From Dicyema japonicum (lineage: Eukaryota > Dicyemida > Rhombozoa > Dicyemidae), in the NCBI GenBank assembly GCA_011109175.1, contig RDEW01000028.1, positions 167,821-198,672 of the forward strand: a stretch of DNA of 30,852 bases, in the 5' to 3' direction. A program made the position numbers and the translations under genes. Below, in pieces: positions 1 through 27,494 of this stretch; position 1 is the first letter of the stretch; each line of letters starts with the position of its first letter. The notes beneath the pieces were generated by a model, which saw nothing but the letters and a program-made list of their open reading frames with translations, did not search any database and was not told the origin of the DNA.

Positions 1-93
1 GGAGGTCCTTTTCCAAGAAGAGGTTAGGCCTCGGACGTTGAATGAGAGCAGCGAGAATTTCTCCAAAAGATAAGGTTTGTACTTTTCAGACAT
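1..93 (-). pseudogene. LINE endonuclease, N-terminal fragment (runs off left edge)
   Basis: Read on the minus strand from an ATG at 93, the sequence is open for 31 codons to the window edge. It includes the motif SLLSFNVRGL, which matches SFTISSFNVRGL at the start of the APE-type endonuclease of the LINE at 22.1-25.3 kb. The flanking DNA at 91-128 (agagccacgtcaccagctca and neighbours) also matches the sequence just upstream of that LINE (near 25284-25318), so the homology covers the 5' leader as well as the start codon. This is therefore the genuine 5' end of another member of the same family, oriented leftwards. Whether the rest of the element is intact cannot be seen. Confidence 0.75.
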
Positions 94-259
94 GTTAATA
101 CTTTATTAGAGCCACGTCACCAGCTCAACCAAAAAATTAATATTCCTTAAGAATGATTAGTTGGTAGAAGATCATCAGGATTGTCTCAATAATTGAGATA
201 ACCTTCCACATTTAATTTTATTATTAAATTTAGTGAATTTTAAATTTATATTAAAAAAT

Positions 260-1078
260 ATGCTTCCTTGTGTGTTGTCAAAATGGAAGCCACGGAATAT
301 CTTTCAAATACGTAATACATCATACGGTCCTTCCAGTGATCTAATCCATAATCCCAATCGAAATCATTTAACATCAAAAGAACATCCTTTAAAAACCTGG
401 GCTAAGCAAGCTACGGAATATCTTTCAAATACGTAATACATCATACGGTCCTTCCAGTGATCTAATCCATAATCCCAATCGAAATCATTTAACATCAAAA
501 GAACATCCTTTAAAAACCTGGGCTAAGCCTCTTCGAGACATCATGGAGAAGGACGACCCTCCAAAGACACCCCATTTGCTACACGCTGTGTGTAGAACCA
601 AGAAAATAAAGGGAGTGCCTTCTATATTAAAGAAGATTCTGTTTGACCTCGACCTTTATGAGAAAGTATTCTTTAAATAAACTATTAGATCGGGAAAGTA
701 ACTGTTCACAAAAATATCCCAGAAATTAACAGCAAACTGTTGAAGGTAAAACATTTGATCAAAGTGGTCCCTCTGACTTTTCCCGACGGTCTCCCTGTGT
801 CTGTGGAAGAGTTGAGTCAGTGCACTATTAGAGCTGACGGCAGTTTCTCCATTTATGACTACAAAACTGAGAGTCCCTGTGAGGGGGGTGAAACACCAGA
901 GTATGAGACCTGGCTGAGACAGCATGATGCACTAAAAAAGGACCGACGACATAAAATAGACAATTATAAAATTGGAGTTGATTTTTTCCCCCCAGAATAT
1001 GTATATAAGCACAACCAGGACAAACAGGAATACAGATATGAACGTCATAGACTTGACTATTCTAATTCTTGGAGATAG
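260..1078 (+). CDS. MRPL30: Mitochondrial large-subunit ribosomal protein uL30m (MRPL30), frame broken by a tandem duplication
   Basis: uL30m is a structural protein of the mitochondrial 39S ribosomal subunit. From the ATG at 260, a basic, acid-poor leader (MLPCVLSKWKPRNIFQIRN) looks like a mitochondrial targeting sequence. The core runs 543-665 (PHLLHAVCRTKKIKG...), then a 23-nt GT..AG intron at 666-688, then IGKVTVHKNIPEINSKLL and KVKHLIKVVPLTFPDGLP. The VHKNIP-x-x-N-x-KL-x-x-VKHLI block is the signature of animal MRPL30. A C-terminal extension of about 70 residues follows, rich in charged and aromatic residues and ending NSWR at 1078. A 121-bp tandem duplication (287-407 and 408-528) shifts the leader out of frame with the core; removing one copy restores a single frame. 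The start at 260 is preferred over the M543 codon because it supplies the targeting leader. Confidence 0.88.
287..528 (+). repeat. 121-bp tandem direct duplication inside MRPL30
   Basis: Two abutting copies, 287-407 and 408-528, differ at about one position. 121 is not a multiple of three, so the second copy puts the mitochondrial leader out of frame. No AG|GT lies at corresponding positions that would allow one copy to be spliced out cleanly. Confidence 0.95.
666..688 (+). other. 23-nt spliceosomal intron in MRPL30
   Basis: Starts GT, ends TAG and contains an in-frame stop. Its removal joins LYEK to IGKVTVHKNIP in phase 0, exactly as the conserved protein requires. This independently confirms that the introns of about 23 nt inferred in the giant gene are real. 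Confidence 0.88.
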
Positions 1079-1109
1079 TGTTCATTTACAGTCGGTTATT
1101 TATTGGAAT

Positions 1110-1115
1110 AATAAA
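1110..1115 (+). terminator. Candidate polyadenylation signal for MRPL30
   Basis: AATAAA lies 32 nt after the MRPL30 stop codon. The position is reasonable for a compact genome, but a hexamer this short occurs often by chance in AT-rich DNA. Confidence 0.45.
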
Positions 1116-1567
1116 CTGATTTATAATAGCTACAGCTTTTTGGTGGGTAATTCTTAATACACTCGAGGGACTCGAAAAACACATCCACTCAGGTCATATA
1201 TATGGAATTCTGGATGGGGTCTTGATCCTCTCCTTCGATGATATCAAGGATAATGCTGGATCGGCTAGCATAAAGTCAAATATCTCCAATTAATTTATTT
1301 GACAGGAACATTAAGTTCCCGCTGACATAATTGATGAGACTGCTTCTGAGTGTAGCCAGACAATACAAACTCTTTAAAAGACCTCCAATTGTTTCAAACA
1401 TATTCTCAATGCATAACCATTTTTGTTCATTTACATCAATGGAATAGGAGGTAGCAAATTAATTAGGCCATCATAGTTCTCATTATCGCCCTCACCATCT
1501 TCGTCATGTGCTCATCGAGAAAACCCTTCCTGGATGTCTCCATTTGATTCTACATAGGAAGTCAATG
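1116..1567. other. Intergenic, nothing recognised
   Basis: I see no long reading frame, no plausible spliced gene and no repeat shared with the rest of the window between the end of MRPL30 and the SINE-like repeat. Confidence 0.5.
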
Positions 1568-1850
1568 CCGGGTGGCATAGCGGTTAGGTGTCGGGCTTAA
1601 GTGACTAAGGTTACTGGTTCGATTCTCGCTGCTGTTCACCTGGTGGAAGGTTCCACACATCTACGATGCTAAAAGAGTTTGACGAGTGACGCCGTCATCA
1701 GTGGATACTCAGGAACTGGATTGTCTAAAAAGAACCCACACACAAGAAAAAAGAAGTGAAGATCATTCCTTGGTTCTACGATTAGTTAAAATTAACTGTT
1801 CTTTACTTAAATAGTGTGTGTCCTGCCTATGCGGAGCTATAAATATTATG
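1568..1850 (+). repeat. tRNA-derived SINE-like repeat, copy 1
   Basis: The left end carries a pol III promoter pattern: an A-box-like tggcatagcggttagg near 1573-1588 and a B-box-like ggttcgattct near 1617-1627, at tRNA-like spacing. The acceptor and T stems do not pair well, so it is tRNA-derived rather than a working tRNA gene. The body includes gacgagtgacgccgtcatca and the tail aagtgaagatcattccttgg followed by acgattagtta. The same body and tail recur on the opposite strand at 3790-4080, and the tail recurs at 25930-26010 and 26711-26790. Homology with copy 2 continues to about 1850. Confidence 0.65.
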
Positions 1851-2486
1851 GCTCTCGTGAAAAGGCTGTTATAAATATAAAAAGTCGATGGAAGAAGGGT
1901 GTCTAAAGAAAGACTGTTCATTCTCAGAACGTAATACGAATGAGCATAGTAGATTTCCTGACAGAATTCCTTGATGACACTTTCTGGATACAATTTCAGC
2001 AAAAATGAATAAGGAGTCACCAATAAAATTAGGATACAATCACGACGAGACTCAGTGACCCTCGTGAACAGCGCTTTGGAGTAGCTATCGTTCACAGCAA
2101 TGTCTCTCTGTTTCTAATATTGATTTTTCAATGTTTTCTGCCCAATTCTATCAAATTGCCTCAATAGCTCTTACTTGGGTTAGTTCTGGAGTCATGGGTT
2201 AATCTTCTTTTCGTATTTTGGACAGGCATCCAGATATAGCTGATTTCTTTGTGAATTAATACTTTCGGTGGTCTTAAGGTTTTAAAATAATAGCTGATTT
2301 CCTCCCGTTGGTCATGAAACTTTGCAATTTTGAAATAGTCTTTGTCACATTCCGTAAGGTTCCACAGTGAAAGAAACAACGTAACATCACGTTCGACTTC
2401 CAGCATTTAAATTTCCTGGCCTTCTCAGGAGCTGAACAGACATTGCAAGTGCTCTGAGAAAGATTGTTTGACGCGAAGGAGTTCAT
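1763..2486 (-). other. Coding-like stretch, possible spliced gene of unknown function
   Basis: The minus strand holds three fairly long open stretches: 2486-2274 (starts MNSFASNNLSQSTCNVC), 2406-2161 and 2095-1763. Cysteine pairs (CNVC, then KFKC) near the start hint at a small zinc-binding fold, but I could not join the exons convincingly with introns of about 23 nt and recognise no family. A GT..AG candidate at 2144-2170 would join two of the frames. The last 15 or so codons of the 2095-1763 frame lie in antisense SINE sequence, so that end at least is probably not ancestral coding DNA. Confidence 0.25.
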
Positions 2487-2489
2487 GGA

Positions 2490-3120
2490 CGTTAAATCCT
2501 AGACTAGTGGCTTTCCAGCAGCAAACAGATAGATGTTCATTGGGACGTTTTCCACCTCCTCTACACACGAGAGAAAACTAAAAAAATCCCACAATGTTCC
2601 GCTTGGAATGGCGTTGAGCTAATTCCTACATTATTATTACTCCAGGATCACTGTATCAAAGAAAACGAAATGAGTTCTCAGTTAGCCATGTAATCCCATA
2701 AAACAAGGGAGAGGACATGTCCGGTGGGGTGGCGAATCCTGTACAGCTTTTCTCATCGGACATGGCTCAAACTTTTTTTATGATTGTAGATATTTTGATA
2801 GTGTATGGAACAAAGGTAGACTAGCCGCCTTTAAGAGTTTCTGTTGTAATTCGATTAATAAAAATGTGATAGATTTTGTGTTCTGGACAAATTAACTTTA
2901 TTGCAGATTGTGGATAATTTCAAGGACTAGGAGCATGAAAACGTCATCGTGGGTAGAATAAATTGTTCATAAACAAGGTTCCCATATTAGTCTAAGTGTT
3001 TTTGAGATCACTTTTAGGATTCTCATTTTCTTAAGAGAAGTCACTTTGTTCTCAACATGTCGGATAAAAGAGAATCCCTGATCAAAGGTTCCAGAATCCT
3101 CTAAGTTTTGTTAAAATAGC
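2490..3120. other. Unassigned stretch
   Basis: No open frame of note, no repeat shared with other parts of the window and no RNA gene were recognised here. It could hide small exons of an unrecognised gene. Confidence 0.4.
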
Positions 3121-3297
3121 CTTGTTCTTCATATGGATTTTTGGTTCGAGGGAGAGCTCTCTTTTAGAAGTGGTAAACAGCATAACAGAGGACTTTGTTG
3201 CTGATTTGTCGAGCCTCCGCTTCAGAGCCATAGTTCCAACTTGTCAAGCATTTGTTGAGATTACTATCAAAACTTCATGTTCGGGTGGATGTTCATT

Positions 3298-3690
3298 TCA
3301 AATATTTTTTTGAGAAGTTTCCTTGGAAATTTTTGTGATGTCCACAGATATAAGAATTGTCCTTTGATGGGGTTTGAGGAATTTAAATCTTTCCGCAATT
3401 AATTGTGTGAGGTGTGCTGTGGTCAAGTGGTTACCCCAATTCTGTGCTGAGACAAAGGTATTTAGCCTTTCGATGATCCTTGAGACAGGACTCATAATAT
3501 TGGGGGATAGGATGATGGTTCATTTATTGTTTATGTTTTCGAATAGGTTTGGAGACTTGTTTCATATTTCAGGGATTATGTTTGTGTTTATTGATAGGTT
3601 GAAGATATTGATAGTTCCAGAGCTTGATGCCCATGTGCTTCAGTTCACACGTGGTTATGTTGTCTGGTTTTCTGGTCGCTAAGTTGTTGG
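3298..3690 (-). pseudogene. Degenerate LINE reverse transcriptase fragment
   Basis: On the minus strand, 3495-3298 encodes SPVSRIIERLNTFVSAQNWG, then HLTTAHLTQLIAERFKF, then KPHQRTILISVDITK. This has the order and spacing of RT fingers/palm motifs in jockey/CR1/I-like LINEs, where P-x-x-KIFERL is followed by a G-F-R-x-x-x-ST-like block and KPP-x-RT-x-x-x-x-LD-x-SKAFD. The canonical GFR and AFD residues are lost or changed, and frames on either side are broken by stops. It is too decayed to assign a clade. Weaker RT-like reading continues towards 3150. Confidence 0.4.
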
Positions 3691-3789
3691 TCTTAGAACA
3701 TCCTGACTAGTAAAGAGAATCCAGTCTTTGGAGAGTTTCTGTTGTGTTCTTTTGAAAACTCCGTGTAGGAGATAGACGAATAATCCCTA

Positions 3790-4080
3790 CTACTTTGAGT
3801 AGCCGTATTAGTTATAGTTCCTCCCAGACACATACTTTATTTTGAGAAAAGAACAGTTATCATAACTAATCGATGAGGGAAACCAAGGAAGCTCTTCACT
3901 TATTTTTGTTGGATGTGAGTCTTTTTATAGACGATCCGGTTCTGCAGTGAGATGTTGACTGATGACGGCGACACTCGTCAAGCCAAAACATGACAGTGGA
4001 ACCTCCATTCGAAATGTTCAACAGGGAGATTCGAGCTATGGGACAGGAGGCCTTTTGGCCGGTTACACTGCAGTACCCAG
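3790..4080 (-). repeat. tRNA-derived SINE-like repeat, copy 2
   Basis: The reverse complement matches copy 1 in blocks: gacgagtgtcgccgtcatca, aagtgaagagcttccttggt, gattagtta and aactgttctt, in the same order. A B-box-like gctcgaatctc stands at the equivalent place; the A box is weak. Divergence is substantial, so these are old copies. The repeat ends just downstream of the giant gene's last exon. Confidence 0.65.
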
Positions 4081-4203
4081 AAAAGTCTTAAACATTAAAT
4101 GAATTTAAATAAATTTTAGTTCACTGTGATTTTTAAGTTTGTATGTTAATCATAATTTTAAGCCGTTTAATTATATTTGTTATAACAACAAAAAATACAT
4201 CGT

Positions 4204-4849
4204 TTAGGAGAGCTCATAGGGATAGTATCTGCATGTATACGAGCCAATCTTGTTAACACAGTAATGTTGACGTGGACATTTAAACTCTCTGAGCTCACAT
4301 TCATTGATGTCTAAATAATTAAGTAAGGTACCTTTGCACTCTCCACATTGGTCCATGTAAAATCCCGACAGACACTCGCAGTAGTATGACCCAGCCGTAT
4401 CAACGCATTTGCTGTCCTTGGGACACTGGTTCTCAGATGTTTCGCACTCATTTATGTCTATTCAATACTACGAAAGGTACTTTTGCACAATTTTTCAGAC
4501 TTTTCGAAGCCCTCGTTGCACACACAGTCAAATCCCCCGAACGTTTCGACACATTGGGAGTTCTCGGGACAATTGTCTGTCTTTAAAGAACATTCAGGGA
4601 TATCTCAAAGTCATCAAAAACCCAATAACCAACACACGTTCCATTTTCCAATTTAAAACCTTCGGGACACTTCCCTGAGCAGTTGTCACCATTTCCGACG
4701 AAACCTGTCTTGCAGTGACAACCGTGATATCCGTCTATAGTTTCACAAACAGCATCCGAGTGACACTTTGTCGAAACACAATTTAATCTCCCATTTTTTG
4801 TGCAGTGACATTTTTCATCGCAAAGAGGGGAATAGACGGTTTCATTTGT
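4204..4849 (-). other. Domain block: VWC/EGF-like segment and terminal EGFs
   Basis: 4849-4630 reads [20 protein letters not shown], then an EGF-like [19 protein letters not shown], then [13 protein letters not shown]. After a 26-nt intron come [18 protein letters not shown], then (after the 23-nt intron 4458-4480) [18 protein letters not shown], then (after the 21-nt intron 4311-4331) [18 protein letters not shown]. The last EGF is cut short: it reaches GSYTC and then RYYPYELS before the stop, lacking its last two cysteines. The C-terminus is therefore an incomplete domain, either natural or due to a missed terminal exon. Confidence 0.85.
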
Positions 4850-7800
4850 CTGTGATTATGACTTACATTACCAGAATGTACGAGTTCTTATAGAAGCAAC
4901 CACAATCTTCAGGTTTGACGCAATCACTCCCGCTATATACATAGCCTTCCTTGCACATGCAGTCCTCGGAATCAAAGCATATAGGAGAATTAGGTGCACA
5001 GCTTTCTATGCATTTTCCATTAGAATATTTCCACTCCATGTTTCGGGGACATTGAACAGCTAACCAATGTTGAGGCAAGTCTACAGCATTTGGAGTACAA
5101 TCCACTGTTTCTCCAAGATCCCGTTCTGTATCCAATGGAATAACAGTATTCCTCAATGACCTTTCCAAATATGCAAATGCTGGTGTTGGAATGGCACAGG
5201 TCATAAGCACATGACTTAATCAGTTCCTTTATGATATTCTCCTGCATATTACTCATGCATTGCTATATTGCTAACAAGAATAACCTTAAATGGATCAAAT
5301 GAAATTGCTTTCTGGCATATTTTAAAGTACTCCTGATTGCGAGGACATGTTTTCTTTTGCCCACATAAAACATCTTCCAAACAATCCTTTCCCGTAATGG
5401 AGGCATCTGAGCTTGTCCACGAAAGCTCAAAGGCGTTGTGTTCCTTAAATATTTATGCTTTCATACGGCTTTGTCGCTACACGCATTAAAAGACCCGTGT
5501 TCAAAGTCATCAATGGGGTCATCATTTGCGTTCCCACATATCCCAGTGACATTATTGTATTTCCCAACATAAATGGAAAGAATATGGTCGGCGTCGAATT
5601 CGACGGTAAAGTCAAATTTAACGGAAATCATGACCTACTTGTGACCTCATTACTTAACCATTTTATTTTTTTGGAATAGAATGAAGTATCCTGGGTAAAT
5701 AACCGGAGAATGAACTTTCTCATAGTTTACGTAAATCTGGAAATTTCTCAGCAAATCGATCCTCTAAAAGTTACAGGTAACACAACATCGTGGTTGTGGT
5801 ATATTGTGACCCCCTGAATCCACGTGGCATTATCTGAACGCTCTATTTTTCCGTTTTCCGAGTCAATTCTGATATTGATGTAGTCTCCAATAATTTTCCA
5901 CCCCTCAAGTCTGTCTTGAGACAAAATATATCGACACTTTCCTTGGAAGTGTGACCACTGGCCATCGAATAAATGTACGTGGGGATCTCCAAAGACCTTA
6001 CATTCTTTAAGTTCTGCAAGTAACTAAATCGATATGTGAACTGTGGCATTGTCCTTTGTAGCCTAACCCTTTCAGCCCTTCATTGCACTGACAGTAATAT
6101 TTTCCTGGGAGATTGTGACATTTGGCATTTCTGTCACAATTATGAATTTTGTCCGTGCATTCGTTTATGTCTACGAATAACAATATATTATACCCTCGCA
6201 GGTTCCATTTACTTTTCTGTACCCTTCGTAGCATTCACACTTATAGGATCCGGGGCTATTGTCGCAAAATGAATTCTGAGGACACTTGTGACCAAAAATT
6301 CCAATTTCTTCGCACTCATTAATATCTTACAAATCATAGACACAACAGTCTACCAACACACAGTCTACCATTCCCTGTAAATCCTCTTGCACATGAACAT
6401 CTGTAACCATTCACTAGGTTTTCACAAACTGCAAATTTATCACAGTCATTGAATCCATTCTGACACTCGTCAATGTCTGTATAAATTTAACGGTAACCGA
6501 TTGGTTTATTGGAACACTGAATTGACCCAACTTTGATCTGGCTAGGGTCATCAACTGAAGTAATCGAGATGGGAATATCAGTTGGGGATCTGATAGAGAA
6601 TATCCCAACATCAGAACGTGTCGCATTAACGTCAGCCATGCAATTGCACCCCCTTCAGTAAATAGGTCGATTACTTGTTCTGAAGACAAGAGCCACTGCA
6701 TGCGCATTTGAAGTGCGGAAAATGTAGTTTTGGAGTCGAGTACCTTCCCATCAATTGTATTCTTAGACCCATAATTGAATTCTTTATCCATTAATGTACA
6801 AAGTAAACCACATTCGTGCACGTGTATTTGATAGGCAGAAAGCAGTAGCTGTACATTTTGACCAAATTCCTGATTTGGTTGTGGTCAACGTTAACGTATT
6901 TTATGTTAACTTTGGTGTTTGTTACCGTCAAATATGTGGATATTTGAGTAATACCAATTCCTGCTAATAAAATCAGTGGTGACCCTTAATATTTCTGCAG
7001 TACACGTAAAATGGCTTCACATAATAAGAAGGTTGAATGAGTAGTTCCGTGTCATAGGGTAAACTTGATGTCCCCAATTCGCAGTTTTTTGGAATACCTA
7101 CCTCAATGAAACCTCTACCAGTTATTTTATCAGCACAGTGGATGTCCCCCACTTTTACATTGCTATTATTAAAGCTGACAAACTGCAGGCCTGATATGGG
7201 CATGATGTTCCTTGGAATAAGATTCGTTGATTACTTGTTGAAGATTAATCCCCCTTCATTTGCACTTTCGTTTCTTTTAGCATCACATCGGCATTTAAAG
7301 TCAGCAGGACAGGTCTTTGTCCGGGAACATAAACAGTTTGTTGAATTCACCAAGTCTCCTCCTACCCAATATTTCAGTTTAGTCCCCTTGTAGTCAACCA
7401 TCTCTACATTATTAGACAAAACTTGAGTTTTTCCACAAATATACCACAATTCCTAAATGAATGCACCAAACTCTATAACCTGCCAACAGTTATTCAAATG
7501 TTTGAGCATCTCGTGGATCTGAATGTAGTTAGCCTTCTCATAGACTATGTTGATTGTCTCGGTGGTTGATTTAGTCATATTAACTTTTACCTACCAATTA
7601 TAGCATAATCTCACAATAGTTTCGATTACGGAGTGTTTATAATTATACTGACAGCGAACACTGAATGGATCTTGTCCTAGTGCCCCATCTGGGTCTATCG
7701 TGTTGTACTCATTCGATAAGAAATTATAACTTCTTTGAGCCTGTAAGAGTTGGTTGCAGCTTTTTTGAATAACTGAAATGATTAGTGATATCTACAAAAG

Positions 7801-10800
7801 CATTCCAAATCGTGTATTTTAGCCGTTACAGGTGCGGTTATCTGTTCTGCTATAAATCCTCGGATTGGTAGCTCAGATTTATTGATCAGATATCCTTCTA
7901 AAGATTTCTCATCCCTTTTACAAAAACAATGCGTCCCCTCGCACTGTTTATTTTCTGTAGAAATTACTACCAATAAAAACTTGAGTTTATCCAATAATCT
8001 CCCCTTTTGTTGTAAACTGTTTTCATAAAAATGTTCCTCCCAAATTGTAATTGGCTATCCCGAGGACAATTTAATAACACTTTTTGCCGACAATATGAGG
8101 ATGCCGACGTGAGTGAGGTAAGTTGGGAAGTTCTCAAATTATTATAACTGATTGATCGATTATCAGTGACTTCCATTAGGACCTCTTTATTTATAATCTG
8201 AATTAACAGGTGGATAAAACAGTTATTGCGTGCAGGGGGTTGAGGATGATGTGACACCACACGGAAAATGGTTTCTCTGGCCCTCTCTGTCCATCCGGGT
8301 CGATGATAAGACTGTGACTTTTTGTTGGATTAAAGTGAGATTTTATTAACTCTCTTTGGCAGTCGATCGGCAAATCTACAAAGTCTATAAATAATTTACC
8401 TAGTTGTTGGTTACTGCAGACCAAATCCCCAACAACCGCATAAAGTAGTCCATCAGAGTTTATCTTGCTCAGATTAAACGTTTTAATTCCCATAATTGGC
8501 AGACGAGTATGATCAATGATGTATCCTTCATCAATATTTTCAGAATTGACATCACACATGCATTTTTGGGTTACATCTGATGAACATCTACTATGAAGTC
8601 CACATCCACAGGATGGGTATCCATCAGCATTACCCCAGTCTACAATTACTTATATAAAATGCCATAGTTATTATTCCCATCCGCAGAAATCCAGCTCACA
8701 TGACCAGTGATTGGGAAATTACTGCATTTCAGCTTTATGTGTTGTTTGCATGATACGAATTTCGTCATTAATTGCTAGTACATCATATCAACCAAACCTT
8801 AATCTGAGTTAGGCTTAGAAGGTAGTTGATCTTCATGGTTAGTGACGTCGCAGAACCGAAAGTGATAATCCCAGGTCCTGACATTATTTAACTTTAATAC
8901 TTGGATTCAAAATGCTTAGACCTTCATAAGAGCAATATAACTTAAAGGGCTTAAAAGGCCCGGGACCATCGGGATCAATATAATAATAACCGCTAGGAGG
9001 AAGCTCCCCCGACTTAACCCGGAGGAAATTGATTGTATTCAAACATGAGTCATAGATATCTCCAATAACTCAGACTTTACCATAACATTTGATTCGTGAT
9101 TCTGAGAAGATTATGCTAGGAGTATTTATTTTCACAGACGGAACCGATTTGCCCAATACCGTATATATTCTAAATTCACAAACAGCTAAAACATAGTCTG
9201 TCCGGCACAGTCGCAGGTATCAGCGTCCTCGCAAAATATTTCGCTAAGTCGTTTGACGATTCTCTCTCCCGTTGGGAATGTGACATCAATGGAATCATAA
9301 TCTGACAATATTAAGGGACCATACTCTTTATTGCAGATCCACATTTAAGGTGCAATTCTTGAGTGCAATACGCAGAGTTCTTTATTATTAATAAAATGTT
9401 CTCAGTGATGCTGCTCAGAGTGTAGGCCCACCATTGCTTTAAATACATTTTCTACGAATAAATCCACTATCTACCGCTATCTTGAAATTCATAATGGCCG
9501 CAACACCGAATTCAGTTTCCTCACAGTGGACAGGGACACTCACATTTTCTATAAAATTAGACGATTACATGCCATATTTCAGAAAGTACGTATAATTCAT
9601 TGGAAAGTTCTTCATTTTGTACGACAAACAGGAGGAAAAAACATCTACGGTTGCCTAAATACTAAACCATGCTTATATTGAGCACATTCCACCGGTCCTA
9701 CCAAAATTCTGCCTTCGTTTGGAATTTCACTGTGAAATGAAACGATTGGAAGACTAGACTTGTTATTCTCAATTCCAAAGTCGAAAGTATTAGCCTTACT
9801 CTAATATTATAATAAACAAAAGTGGGGGACCTCACAGTTGCATTTTCTATTACTTATGCACATCCCCGTGAAGGAACAGCCACACGACCCATTTACTGCT
9901 CTTCCACCAGGACCATAGTCGAGTTTTTTTAGTTGAGAGTAGAACCCGTCGTCTGGATTTTCGAATAAACTTGAATTCTCGAAATTAAATGTTTTGTTAC
10001 CTTGCATCGATATTCTAAAAACTGAGAGCAGTACTTGTTTGAGGCAATGACTTTGGTGACGAATTGAATAGAATTAAAGTAATCGAGTTTTGTGACCTTT
10101 TCCTTTATTCTCAGAGTACCCCTATTTGTGAGTCACTAAAATGACCTTCTAATGTTCATGGATGTTATTGAATGCATCTTTCCGTGTATACACTTGACGT
10201 ACTCTGGCTGAACATTTCCACTAGAGTCCCCATCACTCCCATCGGGGTCAATTAAGGTTACCATCTCTGAGTCTCTGGTTGTTTGTTTGACCTCATCGCA
10301 ATTCGATAAAATCCCTAATCTTTCATAAACTCGATTCACCAAATTGTCTGGACCCGCATTCAAGGCTATCCAACAGAACCTCATAATTTGAATTCTTGTC
10401 CTTGATATTCCCGGTAATCCCTGTAATTGGGAAGATTTTCTTGTCAATCATCAATCCCTGGTCCACTGTCCGTTCGACTCCGTGGTTAACGCAATTGCAG
10501 GGACTTTTCTTGTTAACACATGACTCATCGTATCCACATGGGCACTGAGTATTAGATTTACATTTACAAGTAACTCTGATTTCGATCCAAGGGCATAAAA
10601 ACTTTGGTCCCTCGCATTTGTGAGTGAGATGTCTGACAAATTCGATACCTTTCCTTTACAAACATATCTAACCACGTGTAATTGTTATTTACCTTATTTT
10701 CTGTGAACAGAATACTGACGAATTCACAATCATCTGAACAGCCGGCAGATTCAACGAGTACTCCACCTTCGTAATAGTTTTTTGGATTCCGATAATCAAC

Positions 10801-12933
10801 CTATGCGTTTTTACGAAAATCACGGATATTCCGATTCCATCACGGAAAACGCATTTTACCTATATTCAGTTTAAAATCAACCATTTCAGCTTTATCATTG
10901 ATTCTAACATTGTAGTACCCATCTCTTGGAGTCTTCACATTCTTGACAACATCATCACAGGATCCGTACAATTCTTACGAATTTTAATCAATCGAACTTT
11001 CACATTTTCCGTTAGCATTTCGTCTCCCGTACTTGCATTTGCAAAGATATCCAGGGACAGTGTCGACGCATACTTCTTCCTCCTCACAAATATTGGACTT
11101 GCACTCATTTATATCTTTGACTCAAATATAAGATTTACTTTTGCACTCATTTTTGCCGTCCCCTTCAAATCCGACTCTGCACTCGCAAAAGTGATTAGCA
11201 CAATCCGCCAATTTGTGGCAGTCCTTATGAGACCAACAATAATTATTTTCTATTTAAAGATTTATATTTTACTAATGCAGATTCCGTTCACTAATTCATA
11301 CCCCTCGTTACATTTGCACGTGTATGACCCAATCGTGTTTAGGCAGTACGAATTTTCAGGACATTCCACAGAAGAACATTCGTTAATATCTACGATTCAC
11401 AGTATTGTTCACCTCCGCAGTATTTGCTTCCATCCCCGTTGAACCCCTCTCGGCACCTGCAGGACCCAAAATGACACATCCCATATTCGCCATTGCAATC
11501 GCCGTCGTTCACACAGTGTTTTAATTCTAAGCACATAAAAGTGGTAATCTCCACCATATTCGCAAATGTAAGAATTTTGTTGGCTGCAGTCATCACTAAC
11601 TGTGCTATGGTTTTCAATGGCATTGCAGAGTCCGTTCTTAGGGACAAGATCTTCACTTGATAAAATTGAAAACCTATCCACAATTTTGTAGACTTGTGTA
11701 ACTTCAATATTTTGGAGTAAAATTCTACATCCCCCATGACTCTTACGCTGGCTAATGTCATCCCCCACTTTGTGCAGTTGTTTACGCTATTTTGAAAAGT
11801 ATTTGTATTAACAGCTTCTTGAAGACACTTATCTCCAAATCTAAGCTCGTGGGTTGGACACACTTTGAAATCTACGTTGACTAATTTCACGCACATTTGA
11901 CCGATTTCTTGCATATCGATTGCTTGTGGTCACTGCACACGGAAGGCGAAAATGTCCCGTTCATATAATGATAACATTTCTTGTTTGTGGGGGTATTCAA
12001 ACTGTAAACTGGACCGTTTATAAATTTCACGTGGTTATTTGTTTGTAACACGTATCCTCCTTGAAGTCCAACCCAATAGGAGACATCGGAGTCACTAGAA
12101 AATTAATAGGTTTTAGACATTATCCCCCGAGAGGATAGTTCAGTCGATATGTCATCGTCAAACGATGCCAAGTCTCCCCCATGTAAGTTACAATAGTAGA
12201 ATCCAGAGAGATAATCAAATTCGTGTTTAATGGCAACATAGCAACTCCCATTAATAAGAACCCACCCATATGGACAGACGTGGGTCATCAAGGTATCTAA
12301 AATAACTTGTGTGTGTACTTATTTCACAAATAAATAATTTAGGAGTCCTGCAGTCTCCAACCCCAAATTTACCGTTATTCCCATCCAAGTATCCACATGT
12401 TTGGTTTTTTGACGAATTCTCCTCTCGTAGTTTGTTAACCCCTCCGTTTTTCCAGTATAATTTATCTAACTTATGATGACCATTACTTATTATTAGATCT
12501 TTCCTGAGTCCAACCCAAAAGCTTTCATTTTTGTTAACAGCCTGTATGCTTTTAAAGATCTTTTCGTAATTAGTGGGGTCCGACAGGGATGCCAGACTTC
12601 CGTTGCAGGAATCATAAGCTTCTTGGTAAGTTTGTTTTTGCGAGTAAATTCTGTAGCAAATTCCGTTAAATTCCTCATAGTAAGGGGGACATTGAGCTAT
12701 TGAATAAACTCACAAGTAACCATGACACCCAGTATGATTCGACCCCTTCTTCCCATCTCCTCGTAAGCCATGTTTGCATATACACTCGAAATTACTGTCA
12801 TCAATATTGACACATTTGGCAAGACTGTGACACGTGAAGGTGGCATGTATTGAACACAAGGAGTGGTCGTTGTGAATCGTAGACAAGACTTATAAATATT
12901 AAATTCCTTACAAATAATAAAAATGAATATCAT
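4204..12933 (-). CDS. Giant secreted modular glycoprotein: EGF, C-type lectin, seven fibrinogen-like modules, VWD-C8-TIL, EGF
   Basis: One minus-strand gene starts at ATG 12933 and stops with TAA at 4204-4206. Splicing 49 introns that I could place gives a continuous protein of roughly 2,450 residues; three further junctions remain unresolved. Exon 1 is only 22 nt and begins a hydrophobic signal peptide (MIFIFIIFLSTIHN). Order: EGF, CTLD x3, EGF-type x4, FBG-like module x7, cbEGF x3, VWD-C8-TIL, VWC/EGF-like, EGF x3. No transmembrane helix is visible, so it is probably secreted and works in adhesion or matrix assembly. Introns placed at 12889-12911, 12697-12720, 12297-12318, 12095-12118, 11872-11894 and so on are mostly 21-28 nt, with about twenty of exactly 23 nt. 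ATTAAA on the minus strand about 33 nt past the stop may be the poly(A) signal. I know of no named orthologue with this architecture. Confidence 0.9.
4872..6013 (-). other. Domain block: von Willebrand factor D, C8 and TIL domains
   Basis: VWD begins [17 protein letters not shown] and continues [13 protein letters not shown]. It closes with [14 protein letters not shown], the usual GLCGN-x-N-x-D-x-x-DDF signature. C8 follows with [24 protein letters not shown] and [21 protein letters not shown] runs [18 protein letters not shown] to [11 protein letters not shown]. This D assembly is known from von Willebrand factor, gel-forming mucins, zonadhesin and tectorin, where it mediates covalent or calcium-dependent multimerisation. 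No CGLC-type disulphide isomerase motif was seen in the part read, so disulphide-linked polymer formation cannot be claimed. Introns of 22-25 nt cut each domain. Confidence 0.9.
6042..6476 (-). other. Domain block: three calcium-binding EGF domains
   Basis: Three successive units begin [30 protein letters not shown] and [15 protein letters not shown]. Each has six cysteines and the D-(I)-(D/N)-E-C plus aromatic-G consensus that binds calcium and makes tandem EGFs rigid. Introns of 28, 23 and 28 nt separate them from each other and from the VWD domain that follows. A rigid calcium-dependent rod between the fibrinogen-like array and the VWD unit is a reasonable inference. Confidence 0.9.
6498..10973 (-). 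other. Seven tandem fibrinogen-like modules of the neurexin-IV/CNTNAP type
   Basis: Each unit of about 180-210 residues follows one pattern: a cysteine, then a Y-x-x-IDPDG...PF-x-V-x-C stretch, a middle part with an x-x-C-x-Q-x-L-x-Y-x-C element, a C-x-C turn, and a close resembling G-L-x-x-x-x-x-LPI...(V)GD-x-x-C. These features match the fibrinogen-like region of neurexin IV/CNTNAP. Units: M1 10973-10340, M2 10314-9668, M3 9644-9081, M4 9059-8400, M5 8375-7796, M6 7772-7119, M7 7097-6498. Clear IDPDG signatures: [11 protein letters not shown] (M2), [19 protein letters not shown] (M4), [19 protein letters not shown] (M5), [17 protein letters not shown] (M6). M1, M3 and M7 keep the cysteine frame but have lost IDPDG. 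Joins between units are 21-25-nt introns. M1 (near 10630-10690), M4 (near 8640-8660) and M7 (near 6790) each contain one junction I could not resolve in frame. Confidence 0.82.
10998..11526 (-). other. Domain block: four EGF-type domains
   Basis: Exon 8 (11526-11413) gives [20 protein letters not shown] and [11 protein letters not shown]. Exon 9 (11389-11273) opens [16 protein letters not shown], the calcium-binding D-I-N-E-C form. Exon 10 (11249-11139) encodes an EGF-like unit ([18 protein letters not shown]). Exon 11 (11114-10998) opens [10 protein letters not shown] and ends [13 protein letters not shown]. Introns of 23-28 nt fall between domains, mostly in phase 1, which is the classic arrangement for exon-shuffled extracellular modules. 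Confidence 0.88.
11555..12933 (-). other. Domain block: signal peptide, EGF and three C-type lectin domains
   Basis: Exon 2 (12888-12721) gives a complete EGF with six cysteines ([16 protein letters not shown], then [13 protein letters not shown]...GC). CTLD1 (12696-12319) runs from [13 protein letters not shown] through WVGLRK and ends [16 protein letters not shown]2 (12296-11895) runs from [13 protein letters not shown] through YWVGLQ and ends with a cysteine pair in [16 protein letters not shown]3 (11871-11555) runs [12 protein letters not shown] to NSYICEYE and is shorter in the long-loop region. Each keeps the W-(I/V)-G core or its remnant and the terminal cysteines. None shows the EPN or QPD plus WND calcium/sugar-binding motifs, so calcium-dependent carbohydrate binding is doubtful and protein-protein contacts are more likely. 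Confidence 0.88.
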
Positions 12934-13288
12934 TAACACTAATATTGATACATTGTGTTATATATTAATAAACCATATGCTGCCTGCTTAATCAATTAGT
13001 GTCAATTACTGTTTTTTTGTCATCAGGTGGGACATTATTTCCAGTAAATTATATACATCTACTGCTCAGAAAATAACCAATCATGTAACATGTGTCTAAT
13101 TACGACAGAATGCAATATGCTCAGTTATAAAAACAATATCAATCAGACTTGCCTGTTGTCACAAATCTATTTCAACTTTGATGACCTTAATGAATTCCCT
13201 CTCATAAACGAATCACAAAGTTTAAAAGATTATAATCATTAAATAATCACATTACTATTTTTGGTGAGGTTTCTTAATTGGATCACAG
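12934..13288. other. Intergenic region between the giant gene and a LINE fragment
   Basis: About 350 bp of AT-rich DNA lies upstream of the giant gene's start codon and must contain its promoter. I see no clear TATA element, initiator or binding-site cluster on the minus strand that I would defend, and no repeat. Confidence 0.4.
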
Positions 13289-14400
13289 TTGAGAAAAATG
13301 TCTAGAAAGCAAAGGATACAAAGGGATGCATCTCGTCTAAAGCTCCTTACGTTCAATGCTAGAAGCTTATCTACGACCTGGTCGAGGAAGATTCTCTGTG
13401 ACGACTTGGAGAGATATGACGTATCCATTGCGTGCCTACAAGAGACGAAAGTTACTTGTAGCCTTGATGAGAGTCATGGTGAATATCGAATAATATGTAT
13501 ACCGAGTGACTCAAAATATTATGGACTTGGATTTGCCATCCATTCAAAGTTGACAAGTGCAGTCCACCGTACATGGAGTGTAAATGACAACATCTGTGTT
13601 ATACAAATCTGTCTAAACGACTTTCCTCCTTCGAAGAGCTTCTGACAATTATAAATGTTTATGAGTCACACTGCGGGAGAGTAGTGAAAGATCCGACAGA
13701 ACTAGACGACTTCTATTCAGCACTGTTACGGACGTACATCAAATTTGAGTCGTCATCACTAATACTCATTGCTGGGGATTTGAATGCGAAAATCGGGATG
13801 AAGAATAACCCGGATGATGTTTTCTTAGGAGAACATGGACGTGGAATAAGAAACCTACCCAGGACAATACTTGGTCACTTTTGTATGGCAAACAACTTTT
13901 TCCTATGTAATACTGCATTTACGCATCCTGCCACAAAACTACGTGGATGGGGAAGCGAAGGAACTCAGAGGGAAAGCTGGTCCCAATATACAATCAAATA
14001 GATTATGTCATACGCCGGGCTAAAGACAAACACCTTCTAGTAAACGCACGTTCATATGAAGGCTCGACGACTGTCAGCGACCACAAGATGGTTATTGCGA
14101 CCTTCACTCTGAAAAAACATGCCATCAAATGCAAGAATGCCAAAAATCACGAATTTGAGAAAATCAGAGGCGACTGAAAGGCTGATTTCCCAACCGGAGA
14201 CTACTGAGAGATGTCAACAATACATTCAGACTCATATGCAGAACGCATTGGTGGATACCTCGTTAGAAGACGCTTGGAAACGCAAAAAAACACCATCAAC
14301 GAAGCTGCTGAGGCATGTCTTGGCAAAAAGAAAAATTCAGGCAGCCGTCCTGTACGTTCATGCTCGGGCACTAAGGAGAACACCGAGAAAAGATGAGATC
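13289..14400 (+). pseudogene. LINE fragment: leader and APE-type endonuclease only
   Basis: A start at 13298 (MSRKQRIQRD) leads into LLTFNARSLS, ACLQETKV, YYGLGFAI and HRTWSVND. After a frameshift near 13640, IAGDLNAKIG, GEHGRGIRN and FFLCNTAF follow. After another near 13970, PIYNQIDYVI and VSDHKMVIATF follow. These are the N, E, D-x-N and SDH motifs of APE endonucleases, in the same order as the LINE at 22.1-25.3 kb, and clearly the same family. The linker after the endonuclease can be followed to about 14400 with several frame changes (NTINEAAEACLGKK), and then the homology stops before the RT. The copy is thus intact at the 5' end and truncated at the 3' end. Confidence 0.8.
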
Positions 14401-15732: not shown

Positions 15733-16078
15733 AGCACAAACAGTCATAACTAACTAATCCAAGGAAGGAATCAAATTGAGAACAGCTGCTTGTGCCGACC
15801 AAATCCATCTTCCAATACTTCATTACAGGTTTCTGCTTGCGAAGAGAGATGGGGAAGTAAGTCCGCCTTCTTCCATTTTTGTCCCACGTCCTACCGTCGA
15901 GGACCAGCACAAACAGTCATAACTAACTAATCCAAGGAAGGAATCAAATTGAGAACAGCTGCTTGTGCCGACCAAATCCATCTTCCAATACTTCATTACA
16001 GGTTTCTGCTTGCGAAGAGAGATGGGGAAGTAAGTCCGCCTTCTTCCATTTTTGTCCCACGTCCTACCGTCGCGGACA
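15733..16078. repeat. 173-bp tandem direct duplication
   Basis: Copies 15733-15905 and 15906-16078 abut without spacer and are nearly identical; the difference I see is near the unit end (cgtcgagga versus cgtcgcgga). No coding content was recognised. Confidence 0.95.
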
Positions 16079-17649: not shown

Positions 17650-18460
17650 ACCAGATCTCAAAAGTATCCCATGCATGTGGCCTAGATGGGTTACCATTAA
17701 TCAGCTTTAAGCATCTTGACTGCGAGCAAAGGCTGCATTAACAGATTTGTACAATTATTTTATCAATACACACGTTCTCTTAAAAATTCGGGAGAACACG
17801 CCTATTCTGAAAACAGAAAAGTCAAAAGAAAACCCTGCTTCGTATCATCCGGTCTCCATACATGCAAAATATCAAAAGTGTTAGAATAACTTGTTCTAAA
17901 GATAATTTTTCAGGATCAGCTTCAAATTTATCAGCGATGGTTTCAGCAAACCAAAAACTCATATGCGGATAGCCTTGCTTTCTGTGGACATAGGAAAGTT
18001 ATTAACTCTATATCGTAGTCTCTGACTCTGCTACCAAAAATAATGTTTTCAACACACCAAAAACTCATATGCGGATAGCCTTGCTTTCTGTGGACATAGG
18101 AAAGTTATTAACTCTATATCGTAGTCTCTGATTCTGCTACCAAAAATATTTTTGAAACTTGTAATAAAATCCGAATATAAAAATGTGACTGAGTAACTTT
18201 CCGAGCAACATGGGAATAATACGGTACGGCGAACACAACTCAATTTGCCGAACGGTTTACCACAAGGACTCCCACTTTCCTCTACATCACTCAAACTGTT
18301 ATTATCAGTCATTCAAATTTCAATGATCCAGACGTGCTGTTACTGCTTGATGAAATTATTATCGCCGTTAGGAACAGACCCCCATCCTAGCTGAACAATC
18401 TCTTCGTACTTATATATGTAGACGATTTCTTTGTTATTTTTTATTTAAAATGTTCGGGTA
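17650..18460 (+). pseudogene. Decayed LINE reverse transcriptase of a second lineage
   Basis: Plus-strand pieces in several frames follow the RT motif order: GLDGLPLISFKHLDC near 17680-17725; ENPASYHPVSIHAKYQK near 17830-17880; THMRIALLSVDIGKLLTLY near 18065-18115; LNGLPQGLPLS-type motif (NGLPQGLPLSS) near 18255-18285; and IYVDDFFVIFY near 18413-18445. The last two correspond to the conserved (N)G-x-PQG and Y-x-DD blocks. YVDD and NGLPQG differ from the YADN/YADD and GVPQG forms of the endonuclease LINE family nearby, so this is a different lineage, jockey/CR1-like at a guess. Frameshifts, stops and a duplication interrupt it. Confidence 0.6.
17951..18155. repeat. 106-bp tandem direct duplication
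   Basis: The segment beginning ccaaaaactcatatgcggat at 17951 recurs at 18057, offset 106. It lies within the decayed RT and duplicates part of its palm region. Confidence 0.92.
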
Positions 18461-18540
18461 GGCAATTTCACTTCTCTTTAGAGTAGATCAGTTTTCCATA
18501 ATGGTACAGGTAGTTTATCATTATGTTTCTTATTCCCAGG

Positions 18541-18862
18541 CTCCTTCGGTCAATTTCACTCGTTCTTAAGAGAAATCTCGGAAAACTGACCAGCTAAGTG
18601 GAAACGACATCATGTAGCGGCTCCATCCACCAAACTGACATTGTAGCTTATGAACACTCCAGATGATCTTTTCGTTTCGAGGTTGATCGTCACCATCCAT
18701 GCTCCTTCGGTCAATTTCACTCGTTCTTAAGAGAAATCTCGGAAAACTGACCAGCTAAGTGGAAACGACATCATGTAGCGGCTCCATCCACCAAACTGAC
18801 GTTGTAGCTTATGAACACTCCAGATGATCTTTTCGTTTCTAGGTTGATCGTCACTATCTGAG
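18541..18862. repeat. 161-bp tandem direct duplication
   Basis: Copies start at 18541 and 18702 with ctccttcggtcaatttcact and differ at only a few positions. No coding content was recognised. Confidence 0.95.
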
Positions 18863-22004: not shown

Positions 22005-22224
22005 ACCAAAAATGTAATTTATTTAATTAAGGTTCCGCTTGTGCCGTATTTTTCTTCAGGTTATTTTTTCCACAATTCTCTTGACTAACTTCCTCCATGC
22101 TCCGCGGTTACAGGACCAAAAATGTAATTTATTTAATTAAGGTTCCGCTTGTGCCGTATTTTTCTTCAGGTTATTTTTTCCACAATTCTCTTGACTAACT
22201 TCCTCCATGCTCCGCGGTTACAGG
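22005..22224. repeat. 110-bp tandem direct duplication at the LINE 3' end
   Basis: Copies 22005-22114 and 22115-22224 are essentially identical and contain the last LINE codons (RGAWRKLVKRI region) and its AT-rich 3' end. Confidence 0.95.
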
Positions 22225-22486
22225 CAGTTATTCCGAGCGTATCCAGATCATCTCCTGTTTTTAGCTTTCGTCCTACATTGGTCAGGTCCTTGTGTAGAAC
22301 CTCTGGCAAAGTTATGCGAGGTCTTCCACGGAACGAGGTATTCACTTCTGGGCACAAATAGTTATCCATTGCTATTTTAGCAGGCGTCATCTGACTCATT
22401 CGAAGGATGTGACCAAACAGACGCAATCTTGATTCCAGGATATCCAGACTCAATGGTCTTGTATTACATACTTTGTATAGATTCTT

Positions 22487-22698
22487 GTTTGTAATTTTTT
22501 TGGCCAGTTGATGCCAAGCAACAGTCGGAGTTGTTTACGATGGAAGGCATCTAGTTTGTCCATTACCGCTTGTGAGACACCCCAGGTTGCAGGTTTGTAA
22601 TTTTTTTGGCCAGTTGATGCCAAGCAACAGTCGGAGTTGTTTACGATGGAAGGCATCTAGTTTGTCCATTACCGCTTCTGAGACACCCCAGGTTGCAG
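22487..22698. repeat. 106-bp tandem direct duplication in the LINE thumb region
   Basis: Copies 22487-22592 and 22593-22698 differ by about one base (cgcttgtgag versus cgcttctgag). 106 is not divisible by three, so the LINE frame breaks. Confidence 0.95.
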
Positions 22699-23034
22699 CG
22701 TTGTACATTAGGACTGGTTTCACGAAGGCATTGTATAGTCTCACACGTAATTGTGTGCTAATTTGTTTGCGATGATTCCAGACTACTCCCATTTTTCCAA
22801 AGGCCGCGACGGCCAACATCTTCCTGTTAGTGATATCCTCAGCATCTCCGAGCAACGACCCCAATTGTTTACAGTATCTTTATTTTTCATCAGTTCGGGT
22901 TAGTTCACGGCGTATGGTAGTTGTCTCCGTCTTTTCCGTATTGATTTTGATGAACCATTTTTCTAGGACATCTGGCATCCTTGTCCGTATATAGTTTAAT
23001 GTTTTCTCGTCGCTGGATATATAGTCGATATTAT

Positions 23035-23246
23035 CTGCATAAATCACTTCAGTTTGAGGTAGATCGCCAATTAATAGTCTGAAGTCTCTGAGTGCCGCCT
23101 CCAGATATGTCACAAAAAGTACCGGTGACAAGGAATCTCTCTGCATAAATCACTTCAGTTTGAGGTAGATCGCCAATTAATAGTCTGAAGTCTCTGAGTG
23201 CCGCCTCCAGATATGTCACAAAAAGTACCGGTGACAAGGAATCTCC
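23035..23246. repeat. 106-bp tandem direct duplication in the LINE RT catalytic region
   Basis: Copies 23035-23140 and 23141-23246 span the stretch between GVPQGDS and YADN and differ at one base (aatctct versus aatctcc). The upstream RT frame runs into the second copy and ends soon after VIYA; the true continuation is in the other copy. Confidence 0.95.
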
Positions 23247-25419: not shown

Positions 25420-25829
25420 AGTGCTATGCGGGTATCATCCTGCAAGGGCGTGCCTAGAGGGGGCCATAAGGGCAGCAGATCCAAGCCATATAGTTCACGT
25501 TATTAAGTTATGATTACTTTTTCTCGACCTTTTCTCATCATAGATAAGATCGACTGCTAACGATCACGATGCTATACTGACTTCAAGCGCATGGGTTTTA
25601 ATCGATGACAGCGCCTGTCAAGTNAGTGCTATGCGGGTATCATCCTGCAAGGGCGTGCCTAGAGGGGGCCATAAGGGCAGCAGATCCAAGCCATATAGTT
25701 CACGTTATTAAGTTATGATCACTTTTTTCTCGACTTTTTCTCATCATAGATAAGATCGACTGCTAACGATCACGATGCTATACTGACTTCAAGCGCATGG
25801 GTTTTAATCGATGACAGCGCCTGTCAAGT
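25420..25829. repeat. About 205-bp direct duplication joined by an N
   Basis: gtgctatgcgggtatcatcc occurs at 25421 and 25626; the copies are nearly identical over about 204 bp and meet at a single N at 25624. The second copy runs straight into unique sequence. The segment includes gggcgtgcctagagggggcc, faintly like a hAT-type end, but no matching second end was found. Confidence 0.95.
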
Positions 25830-26010
25830 TTATCTTTTATCAGCATTGAAAATAAATTCCTCACAAGCTAGGTGAAAGAAGTTATGGTACAGATTTCAGT
25901 GAATACACCCTGCGGAAAGGATTGTATATAAAGGACTCACATGCAACAAAAAGAAAAAAGGAAGTGAAGAGCATTCTTTGGTTCTCCCTTTCTACGATTA
26001 GTTATCATAA
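25829..26010 (+). repeat. SINE-like repeat, tail part (copy 3)
   Basis: tgcggaaaggattgtatata, aaggactcacatgcaacaaa, aagtgaagagcattctttgg and ctacgattagttatcataac match the order of blocks in the copies at 1568-1850 and 3790-4080. The tRNA-like head is not clear here. The right part is repeated in the duplicated block from 26711. Confidence 0.55.
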
Positions 26011-26429
26011 CGTAACAAAACAATTAAAGTAATTGAATGGCAGTTTTCCCTGACAAATACCAGAGAAATCTTTTTGAACAGCCTTTCGGTTTTCCGACGT
26101 TTGTTACTCGCTTTCGTATTAGGACCCAAGCGATCTTAAAAAAGAGAACGTCTTGTCCCGAAGATTCCGCTCGTCTCTACAGCAACGGGATTAATTAGAT
26201 TGTTTTTGTTACGCCTGGTAAGCTGTAGGTAATATGGATCTCACTAAAAGTGCGGTTTATTTTTTGGCCTTTTTCTCTGTTTGCTCGAGTACGAAGTGTT
26301 TGTAATTTTTTCGATTTTCTGAGTTTCTGCTCGCAGAATTAGAAGCGAAAACATTTCGGTTTTTTGATCGTATAGAGGTCTTGTCGATTAGCAGTTCCGG
26401 TTTTTTACATTTGTGCTTCCTTTAACATT

Positions 26430-27211: not shown

Positions 27212-27490
27212 CTATAAGGATATACCTTCCAATGATATCATACTTTTAGCAAATGTTACCTTACTTTGTTGGATAGTTTCGCCGTTTACCAAACTCTTAA
27301 CACACATTAATGTACCATGTTGGTTATTTTTTGTCCCAGTCAATGTAGTAATGTGCCTTGCTGAGTGTTTGAATGTAGTATTGCACATATTCAATTTATT
27401 CATGTTACAAAATTCAACCATATTTTCTCTAGGAAGATTCCTTCTGTTTCTCCTTTGTGATCCAAGGACTCCGTCATATGCTCAACAATC
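27212..27490 (-). pseudogene. LINE endonuclease remnant, second copy of the duplicated block
   Basis: Same remnant as at 26430-26709 (NMNKLNMCNTTFKHS and so on), with one extra codon-sized insertion near 27238. It belongs to the second copy of the 784-bp duplication, not to an independent insertion. Confidence 0.7.
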
Positions 27491-27494
27491 AAGT

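What the first reader, a model, noticed from the sequence alone, without database searches (positions are those of the whole stretch)
4204..12933. A giant gene with an apparently undescribed domain order: CTLDs, seven CNTNAP-type fibrinogen-like modules and a VWD-C8-TIL unit
The sequence directly shows EGF, CTLD x3, EGF, seven tandem fibrinogen-like modules, cbEGF x3, VWD-C8-TIL and EGF in one splice-continuous minus-strand gene with a signal peptide and no visible membrane anchor. In known proteins the neurexin-IV/CNTNAP fibrinogen-like module occurs singly among LamG domains. A tandem array of seven combined with lectin folds and a VWD unit is an architecture I cannot match to any named family. 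In a simple parasite this could be a surface-coat or host-attachment glycoprotein, or a lineage-specific matrix protein.
Basis: partly seen in the sequence, partly recalled or inferred. Interest (0 to 1): 0.88.

Follow-up and report, generated by a model that had tools for sequence, protein, structure and literature searches.

The report
Ancient giant mucus/adhesion-type protein gene
A small, dicyemid-like parasite genome carries one intact giant gene for a secreted glycoprotein whose unusual string of domains is shared with acorn worms, chitons, octopuses and a flatworm, so it looks like an old, unnamed animal protein (probably of mucus or glue) rather than an invention of the parasite.

Summary
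One minus-strand gene, 12933 to 4204, with 50 introns (mean 23.8 nt), encodes 2,513 aa: hydrophobic N-terminus, EGF, CTLD x3, EGF x4, seven fibrinogen-like modules, cbEGF x3, VWD-C8-like-TIL, EGF tail, no membrane anchor seen. A homology-free splice model already aligns over 2,276 columns with a relative (E=0.0); 0 of 6 controls hit any relative.

Uncharacterised proteins of an acorn worm and a chiton show EGF, CTLD x3, EGFs and seven modules (their held sequences stop in module 7); Macrostomum fragments together show the whole order; 13 proteins (10 named molluscs, 3 of unnamed source) have seven modules plus VWD without CTLDs. Module order is conserved: 5 of 7 against four relatives, but 3 of 7 against Macrostomum.

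Most likely function, inferred: a secreted structural or cohesive mucus/adhesive or surface-matrix glycoprotein. The hints come from relatives in mucus and footprints, by domain content. This copy's CTLDs lack EPN/QPD and WND, and its VWD lacks CGLC. There is no expression evidence.

The parts
4204..12933 (-). whole gene, ATG to stop, 50 introns, 2,513 aa
12860..12933 (-). hydrophobic N-terminus, probable signal peptide (split by a 23-nt intron)
   Evidence: sequence; highest 19-residue hydropathy of the protein, 1.43; no predictor run
12722..12856 (-). EGF1
   Evidence: Pfam; 55% identity over 45 residues with octopus P0001
12295..12691 (-). CTLD1
   Evidence: Pfam Lectin_C; alignment
11902..12276 (-). 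CTLD2
   Evidence: Pfam Lectin_C; alignment
11525..11860 (-). CTLD3
   Evidence: Pfam Lectin_C; alignment
10972..11515 (-). EGF2-5
   Evidence: Pfam EGF families; count of four by eye
10301..10959 (-). fibrinogen-like module 1
   Evidence: HMM 68.4 bits
9631..10300 (-). fibrinogen-like module 2
   Evidence: HMM 81.1 bits
9046..9630 (-). fibrinogen-like module 3, diverged
   Evidence: HMM 12.5 bits, E 1e-4
8362..9045 (-). fibrinogen-like module 4
   Evidence: HMM 97.7 bits; NCBIfam NF040941 E 2e-5, below cut-off
7759..8361 (-). fibrinogen-like module 5
   Evidence: HMM 65.9 bits
7084..7758 (-). fibrinogen-like module 6
   Evidence: HMM 93.9 bits
6499..7083 (-). fibrinogen-like module 7
   Evidence: HMM 62.9 bits
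6012..6498 (-). cbEGF x3
   Evidence: Pfam EGF_CA; sequence
5414..6005 (-). VWD, without the first Cys of CGLC
   Evidence: Pfam VWD 67.9 bits; alignment
5058..5386 (-). C8-like region
   Evidence: alignment with relatives; not called by Pfam
4772..5057 (-). TIL and TILa
   Evidence: Pfam TIL below cut-off, TILa above
4207..4765 (-). tail of about four EGFs; the last ends after its fourth cysteine
   Evidence: Pfam EGF_CA, three stretches; sequence

Best explanation
The gene is the ortholog, in a dicyemid-like animal, of an old and unnamed bilaterian family of giant secreted multidomain glycoproteins. It probably works as a structural or cohesive component of a secreted mucus, glue or surface matrix: disulfide-rich EGF and fibrinogen-like modules form a long chain, N-glycans hydrate it, and the CTLDs, fibrinogen-like modules and VWD give protein contacts. 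Shown: an open multi-exon gene, its domain order, orthology to proteins of several phyla, no anchor found. Inferred: secretion, a role in mucus or adhesion, and any use at the attachment to host kidney tissue. Classical CTLD sugar binding and CGLC-driven multimerisation are unlikely in this copy.
For: Colinear BLASTP alignment over ~2,270 columns with P0006, P0008, P0001 and others; seven modules in each of 13 full-length relatives; module order kept, 5 of 7 against octopus, limpet, chiton and acorn worm; CTLD x3 in chiton, acorn worm and Macrostomum. Mucus/adhesion: limpet P-vulgata_2 (2,500 aa, vWFD, EGF x11, Kazal x2, TSP1) found in all pedal mucus types (PMC7333891, passages); Octopus vulgaris P0005 is named 'mucus 2' by its source; sea-star P0019/P0020 carry three modules with VWD, C8, TIL, F5/8 and Gal_lectin, the kind of domain set described for the footprint protein Sfp1 (PMC6410801, PMC9382459, passages). 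31 N-glycosylation sequons, 7.3% Cys.
Against: No expression, proteome or localisation data for this gene. The P-vulgata_2 link rests on length and domain content, not on an alignment, and Pfam calls neither Kazal nor TSP1 in the limpet relative P0010 at E<=1 (Ruditapes P0015 has a precomputed TSP1). That P0019/P0020 are Sfp1 or Sfp2 is my reading of their domains, not a test. Only 3 of 7 modules are on the diagonal against Macrostomum. Module 3 is weak. CTLD motifs and CGLC are lost in this copy, so its role may have changed.
Confidence: 0.6

Rival explanations
1. It is an internal extracellular-matrix protein, fibrillin-like, that links the axial and peripheral cells, rather than a surface or mucus product.
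For: cbEGF tandems and VWD also occur in matrix proteins (established knowledge); no anchor found; two RGD tripeptides.
Against: The relatives with any reported setting are in mucus or footprints, by domain content.
Confidence: 0.25
2. It is a parasite-specific host-attachment lectin or surface-coat protein, binding host sugars through its CTLDs.
For: CTLD x3 present; dicyemids attach to cephalopod renal tissue with their anterior cells (PMC6854800, passage).
Against: The order is shared with free-living animals; EPN/QPD and WND are absent in all three CTLDs.
Confidence: 0.1
3. The region is two or more genes read as one.
For: No transcript data; 10 of 50 introns were placed by hand with the help of relatives.
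Against: The homology-free model alone gives one colinear alignment over 2,276 columns with a single relative.
Confidence: 0.04
4. The gene was acquired from the cephalopod host.
For: The best hit of the first search was Octopus.
Against: Octopus and P0006 (unnamed source) form a supported pair (97/100) that excludes the window row, which sits on a very long, unresolved branch; Octopus P0001 has no Lectin_C while the window gene has three; identity is only ~27%.
Confidence: 0.01

Closest known systems
Uncharacterised relatives: Ptychodera flava P0023, Liolophura sinensis LOC135461554 (P0022), Macrostomum Mlig002622 (P0021, P0025; also P0003, P0004), Octopus sinensis LOC115209782 (P0001), Lottia LOTGIDRAFT_230443 (P0010)
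   Same: N-terminal EGF, EGFs, seven fibrinogen-like modules; CTLD x3 in P0022, P0023, P0004; VWD and TIL in Macrostomum P0003 and in the molluscs
   Different: Molluscs found here other than the chiton lack CTLDs; several have a longer C-terminus; P0022 and P0023 as held stop in module 7; the window copy has lost CTLD sugar motifs and some VWD cysteines
Sea-star footprint protein Sfp1/Sfp2 type (P0019 Asterias, P0020 Patiria; identity with Sfp1 or Sfp2 not tested)
   Same: Three of the same modules, plus VWD and TIL
   Different: Three modules not seven; F5/8 and Gal_lectin domains; no CTLD in the precomputed Pfam list
Flatworm cohesive proteins Mlig-ap1, Tmed-ap1
   Same: C-type lectin, EGF, vWD, C8, TIL in one secreted protein (PMC6410801, PMC9229212, passages)
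   Different: No fibrinogen-like array described in those passages; Mlig-ap1 has KR-rich flanks; sequences not compared here
CNTNAP / neurexin IV
   Different: No LamG or F5/8 hit and no transmembrane segment found; seven modules, not one

Membership tests
Unnamed bilaterian EGF / seven-module / VWD family | seven fibrinogen-like modules in conserved order | tested here: met
   Seven modules, module 3 weak; 5 of 7 on the diagonal against four relatives, 3 of 7 against Macrostomum
Unnamed bilaterian EGF / seven-module / VWD family | colinear similarity through EGFs, modules, cbEGF and VWD-TIL | tested here: met
   One alignment over ~2,270 columns, 27.7% identity with P0006
Unnamed bilaterian EGF / seven-module / VWD family | CTLD x3 between EGF1 and the next EGFs (CTLD-bearing form) | tested here: met
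CNTNAP / neurexin IV | LamG and discoidin domains and a transmembrane segment | tested here: not met
   No such Pfam hit at E<=1; no 19-residue stretch above 1.43 in hydropathy
Sfp1-type cohesive adhesive proteins | VWD-C8-TIL units with F5/8 and Gal_lectin domains | tested here: not met
   VWD and TILa present, but no F5/8 or Gal_lectin hit
Mucus or adhesive secretion protein (functional kind) | presence in secreted mucus or footprints | not testable with these tools
   No proteome or expression data for this animal; link through relatives by domain content
Ca2+-dependent sugar-binding C-type lectin | EPN or QPD plus WND motifs (recalled definition) | tested here: not met
   Absent in all three CTLDs
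VWF / gel-forming mucin type multimerising VWD | CGLC motif (recalled definition) | tested here: not met
   TGIC in place of CGLC

The most novel reading that the evidence does not exclude
A single unnamed glue or mucus protein, already with CTLD x3 and seven fibrinogen-like modules in the bilaterian ancestor, was kept by a roughly 30-cell parasite that shed most matrix genes because it now serves as the adhesive holding the parasite to its host's kidney; with the only other VWD locus found in the genome (three VWDs, LDL-receptor class A domains and Thr-rich repeats) it would be a minimal two-protein animal glue.
Probability: 0.25. Interest if true: 0.65.

Novelty: new member of a known kind. 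Interest (0 to 1): 0.45.

Why it matters
It turns an apparent parasite novelty into a member of an old, unnamed bilaterian protein family, suggests a testable link between acorn worms, molluscs, flatworms and sea-star-type adhesives, and points to one retained giant secreted protein in a group of animals reported to have lost most extracellular-matrix genes (PMC6543705, passage).

Tried and rejected
A shared CTLD insertion uniting dicyemids with flatworms: considered, dropped when chiton and acorn worm also showed CTLD x3. Transfer from the cephalopod host: see rivals. Structure: the longest exon (139 aa, end of module 4 and start of module 5) folded at mean pLDDT 65.5, pTM 0.36; the best Foldseek match in PDB had E 2.0 and probability 0.02: uninformative, neither for nor against the fibrinogen fold. 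phmmer of module 5 alone against PDB: no hit at E<=10. The first splice model had errors in CTLD3 and in modules 1, 2, 3, 4, 5 and 7, mended by hand; the first homologue search was run with that early model, slightly corrected. Papers: searches with the relatives' accessions, with the domain combination and for a seven-module protein found no description of the family; this covers only the held open-access library. A search for dicyemid attachment and glycocalyx returned only unrelated papers among the 12 listed. Annelid, brachiopod, parasitic-flatworm and orthonectid members did not appear in the three protein searches; that is non-detection under word filters, not proof of loss.
Full report
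WHAT IS THERE. The window is C113:167821-198672 of a 64.67-Mb genome in 191 contigs. Size and tiny introns fit a dicyemid: Dicyema japonicum has 67.5 Mb and a mean intron of 38 bp (PMC6736024, passages); in Dicyema sp. the median intron is 27 bp, against 57 bp in the orthonectid Intoshia linei (PMC6543705, passages). The species was not identified. A homology-free splice search over 12933-4204 on the minus strand gave an open path with 51 introns. With relatives as guide I kept 40 of these and placed 10 by hand: 50 introns of 18-38 nt (mean 23.8, median 23), two of them GC-AG, and 2,513 codons. Control: the homology-free search scored +347 on the real strand and -43 to -232 on the opposite strand and five dinucleotide-block shuffles (one of these paths ended early); only the real strand gave BLASTP hits at 1e-3, the best over 2,276 columns at 26% identity. 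The codon table came from open stretches of the real strand. For 2 of 50 introns retention would leave the frame open.

ARCHITECTURE. Hydrophobic N-terminus, EGF1, CTLD x3 (Pfam Lectin_C, three stretches), EGF2-5, seven fibrinogen-like modules of 157-205 aa, three cbEGFs, VWD, a C8-like region, TIL/TILa, and a tail of EGFs whose last one stops after four cysteines. Pfam does not call C8, and TIL is below its cut-off. No 19-residue stretch exceeds a mean hydropathy of 1.43, the value at residues 1-19; 31 N-glycosylation sequons, two RGD tripeptides, 7.3% Cys, pI 6.7, 283 kDa. A profile of 14 modules, seven from the window and seven from relatives, matches fibrinogen beta (E 1e-4) and fibrillar-collagen C-propeptides (E 2e-4) in PDB over its first ~50 positions. 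Pfam calls COLFI in 4 and Fibrinogen_C in 2 of the 14 modules; window module 1 has no hit. NCBIfam's fibrinogen-like model hits window module 4 (E 2e-5, below cut-off) and the chiton relative (E 2e-22, four stretches). Module 5 alone finds nothing in PDB, and a low-confidence model of one exon found no fold match. The rest of each module carries a CxC...CxCD linker, diverged in some.

RELATIVES. Three protein searches were run. The first (early model, residues 560-1720) gave 4 proteins of 2,409 candidates: Octopus sinensis, Pinctada and two Macrostomum fragments. The second (octopus module region) gave 18 of 5,338: the query itself, 12 named molluscan proteins, three of unnamed source and two sea stars. 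The third (four-row alignment) gave 9 of 5,458: four Macrostomum pieces, the chiton Liolophura sinensis, the acorn worm Ptychodera flava, and three vertebrate proteins covering 9-19% of the query, which I do not count as members. An HMM made from the seven octopus modules finds seven modules in the window protein (module 3 at 12.5 bits), seven in P0001, P0006-P0011 and P0013-P0018 (13 proteins, ten of them named molluscs), seven with a partial first one in P0002 and P0012, seven with a truncated last one in chiton and acorn worm (module 2 of the acorn worm in two pieces), seven over overlapping Macrostomum fragments, a broken set in P0005, and three in each sea star. All 13 have VWD and none has Lectin_C in their precomputed Pfam lists. 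Chiton and acorn worm carry Lectin_C x3, as does Macrostomum P0004. Their held proteins stop in module 7, so the VWD half is unseen in those two. In Macrostomum, VWD and TIL are called in P0003; in P0021 Pfam called TIL but not VWD. So the N-terminal order is shared by a deuterostome, a mollusc, a flatworm and this animal; the simplest reading is that it is older than their common ancestor and that the CTLDs were lost in the other molluscs. That is inference.

MODULE ORDER. Comparing module i with module j by local score, the window's best hit lies on the diagonal for 5 of 7 modules against octopus, limpet, chiton and acorn worm, and for 3 of 7 against Macrostomum; acorn worm against chiton and chiton against limpet give 7 of 7. 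By my own arithmetic, 5 or more of 7 has a chance of about 0.001 if best hits were random. A tree of the module region puts the dicyemid row on a very long branch (4.52), its place among chiton, acorn worm and Macrostomum unresolved and open to long-branch error; octopus and P0006 form a pair (97/100) that excludes it. That, and the lack of CTLDs in octopus P0001, argues against acquisition from the host.

HOW IT MAY WORK. In the window CTLDs neither EPN/QPD nor WND is present; WND is found in the third CTLD of chiton and acorn worm, and is missing in Macrostomum too. In the VWD domain the first cysteine of CGLC is replaced, and so are two cysteines around GDPH that the molluscs and Macrostomum have (the sea star lacks these two as well). 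Motif meanings are recalled knowledge. So classical sugar binding and CGLC-driven multimers are unlikely here. What remains is a long disulfide-rich, glycosylated chain with many protein-contact modules. Functional hints come from relatives: limpet P-vulgata_2 (2,500 aa, vWFD, EGF x11, Kazal x2, TSP1) was found in all pedal mucus types (PMC7333891, passages); an Octopus vulgaris relative is named 'mucus 2' by its source; the sea-star proteins have a domain set like that given for Sfp1, a cohesive footprint protein (PMC6410801, PMC9382459, passages). The link to P-vulgata_2 is by domain content and length only, and Pfam calls neither Kazal nor TSP1 in Lottia P0010. I hold a mucus/adhesive or surface-matrix role as most likely (0.6) and an internal matrix role as the main rival (0.25).

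GENOME CONTEXT. One exon of the array, used as a query, finds only itself in the genome at E<=1. VWD was found at two places: this gene and C112:910404-913739, with three VWD domains (such counts are lower bounds) and, on the same strand nearby, LDL-receptor class A domains and Thr-rich tandem repeats. That content resembles limpet P-vulgata_3 (C8 x2, vWFD x3, TIL x2, LDLa x5), again by domain content only, and whether it is one gene was not worked out. Lectin_C has 36 exon-level places.

NOVELTY. The parts and most of the order exist in public but uncharacterised proteins, so this is a new member of a known kind whose family I found undescribed in the searches listed. The notable point is retention of a 2,513-aa old secreted protein in a group reported to have lost most genes for extracellular-matrix molecules (PMC6543705, passage).

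Noticed in passing
287-528, 15733-16077, 17937-18148, 18536-18858, 22005-22224, 22487-22705, 23034-23250, 25420-25829; and a pair 781-785 nt apart in 25930-27494: Nine near-perfect (96-100%) duplications, eight of them tandem, each with two copies; units of 106 nt (three times), 110, 121, 161, 173 and 206 nt. Single similar ones occur in L006, L013 and L014 among 19 other loci scanned. Assembly artefact or a recent duplication process; undecided.
   Followed up: partly
22166-25303: Non-LTR-type element on the minus strand: reverse transcriptase (RVT_1) at 23049-24512 and endonuclease at 24464-25303, its frame interrupted at the duplication 23034-23250. An endonuclease-like fragment by eye lies at about 13268-14177 (+), some 340 bases upstream of the gene's ATG; Pfam found nothing in 13588-13998.
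   Followed up: partly
L017 (G000:C112:904500-914400), about 76-9800: The only other VWD locus found: three VWD domains, TIL-like stretches, LDL-receptor class A domains, then Thr-rich tandem repeats of about 167 nt; resembles a mucin or SCO-spondin-like secreted protein.
   Followed up: partly
9572-9549 and 8662-8640: Two GC-AG introns of 24 and 23 nt, placed by hand because they restore the frame and the match to relatives.
   Followed up: partly
689-1078: Plus-strand frame with a weak ribosomal protein L30 match (Pfam E 0.004, below cut-off).
   Followed up: no
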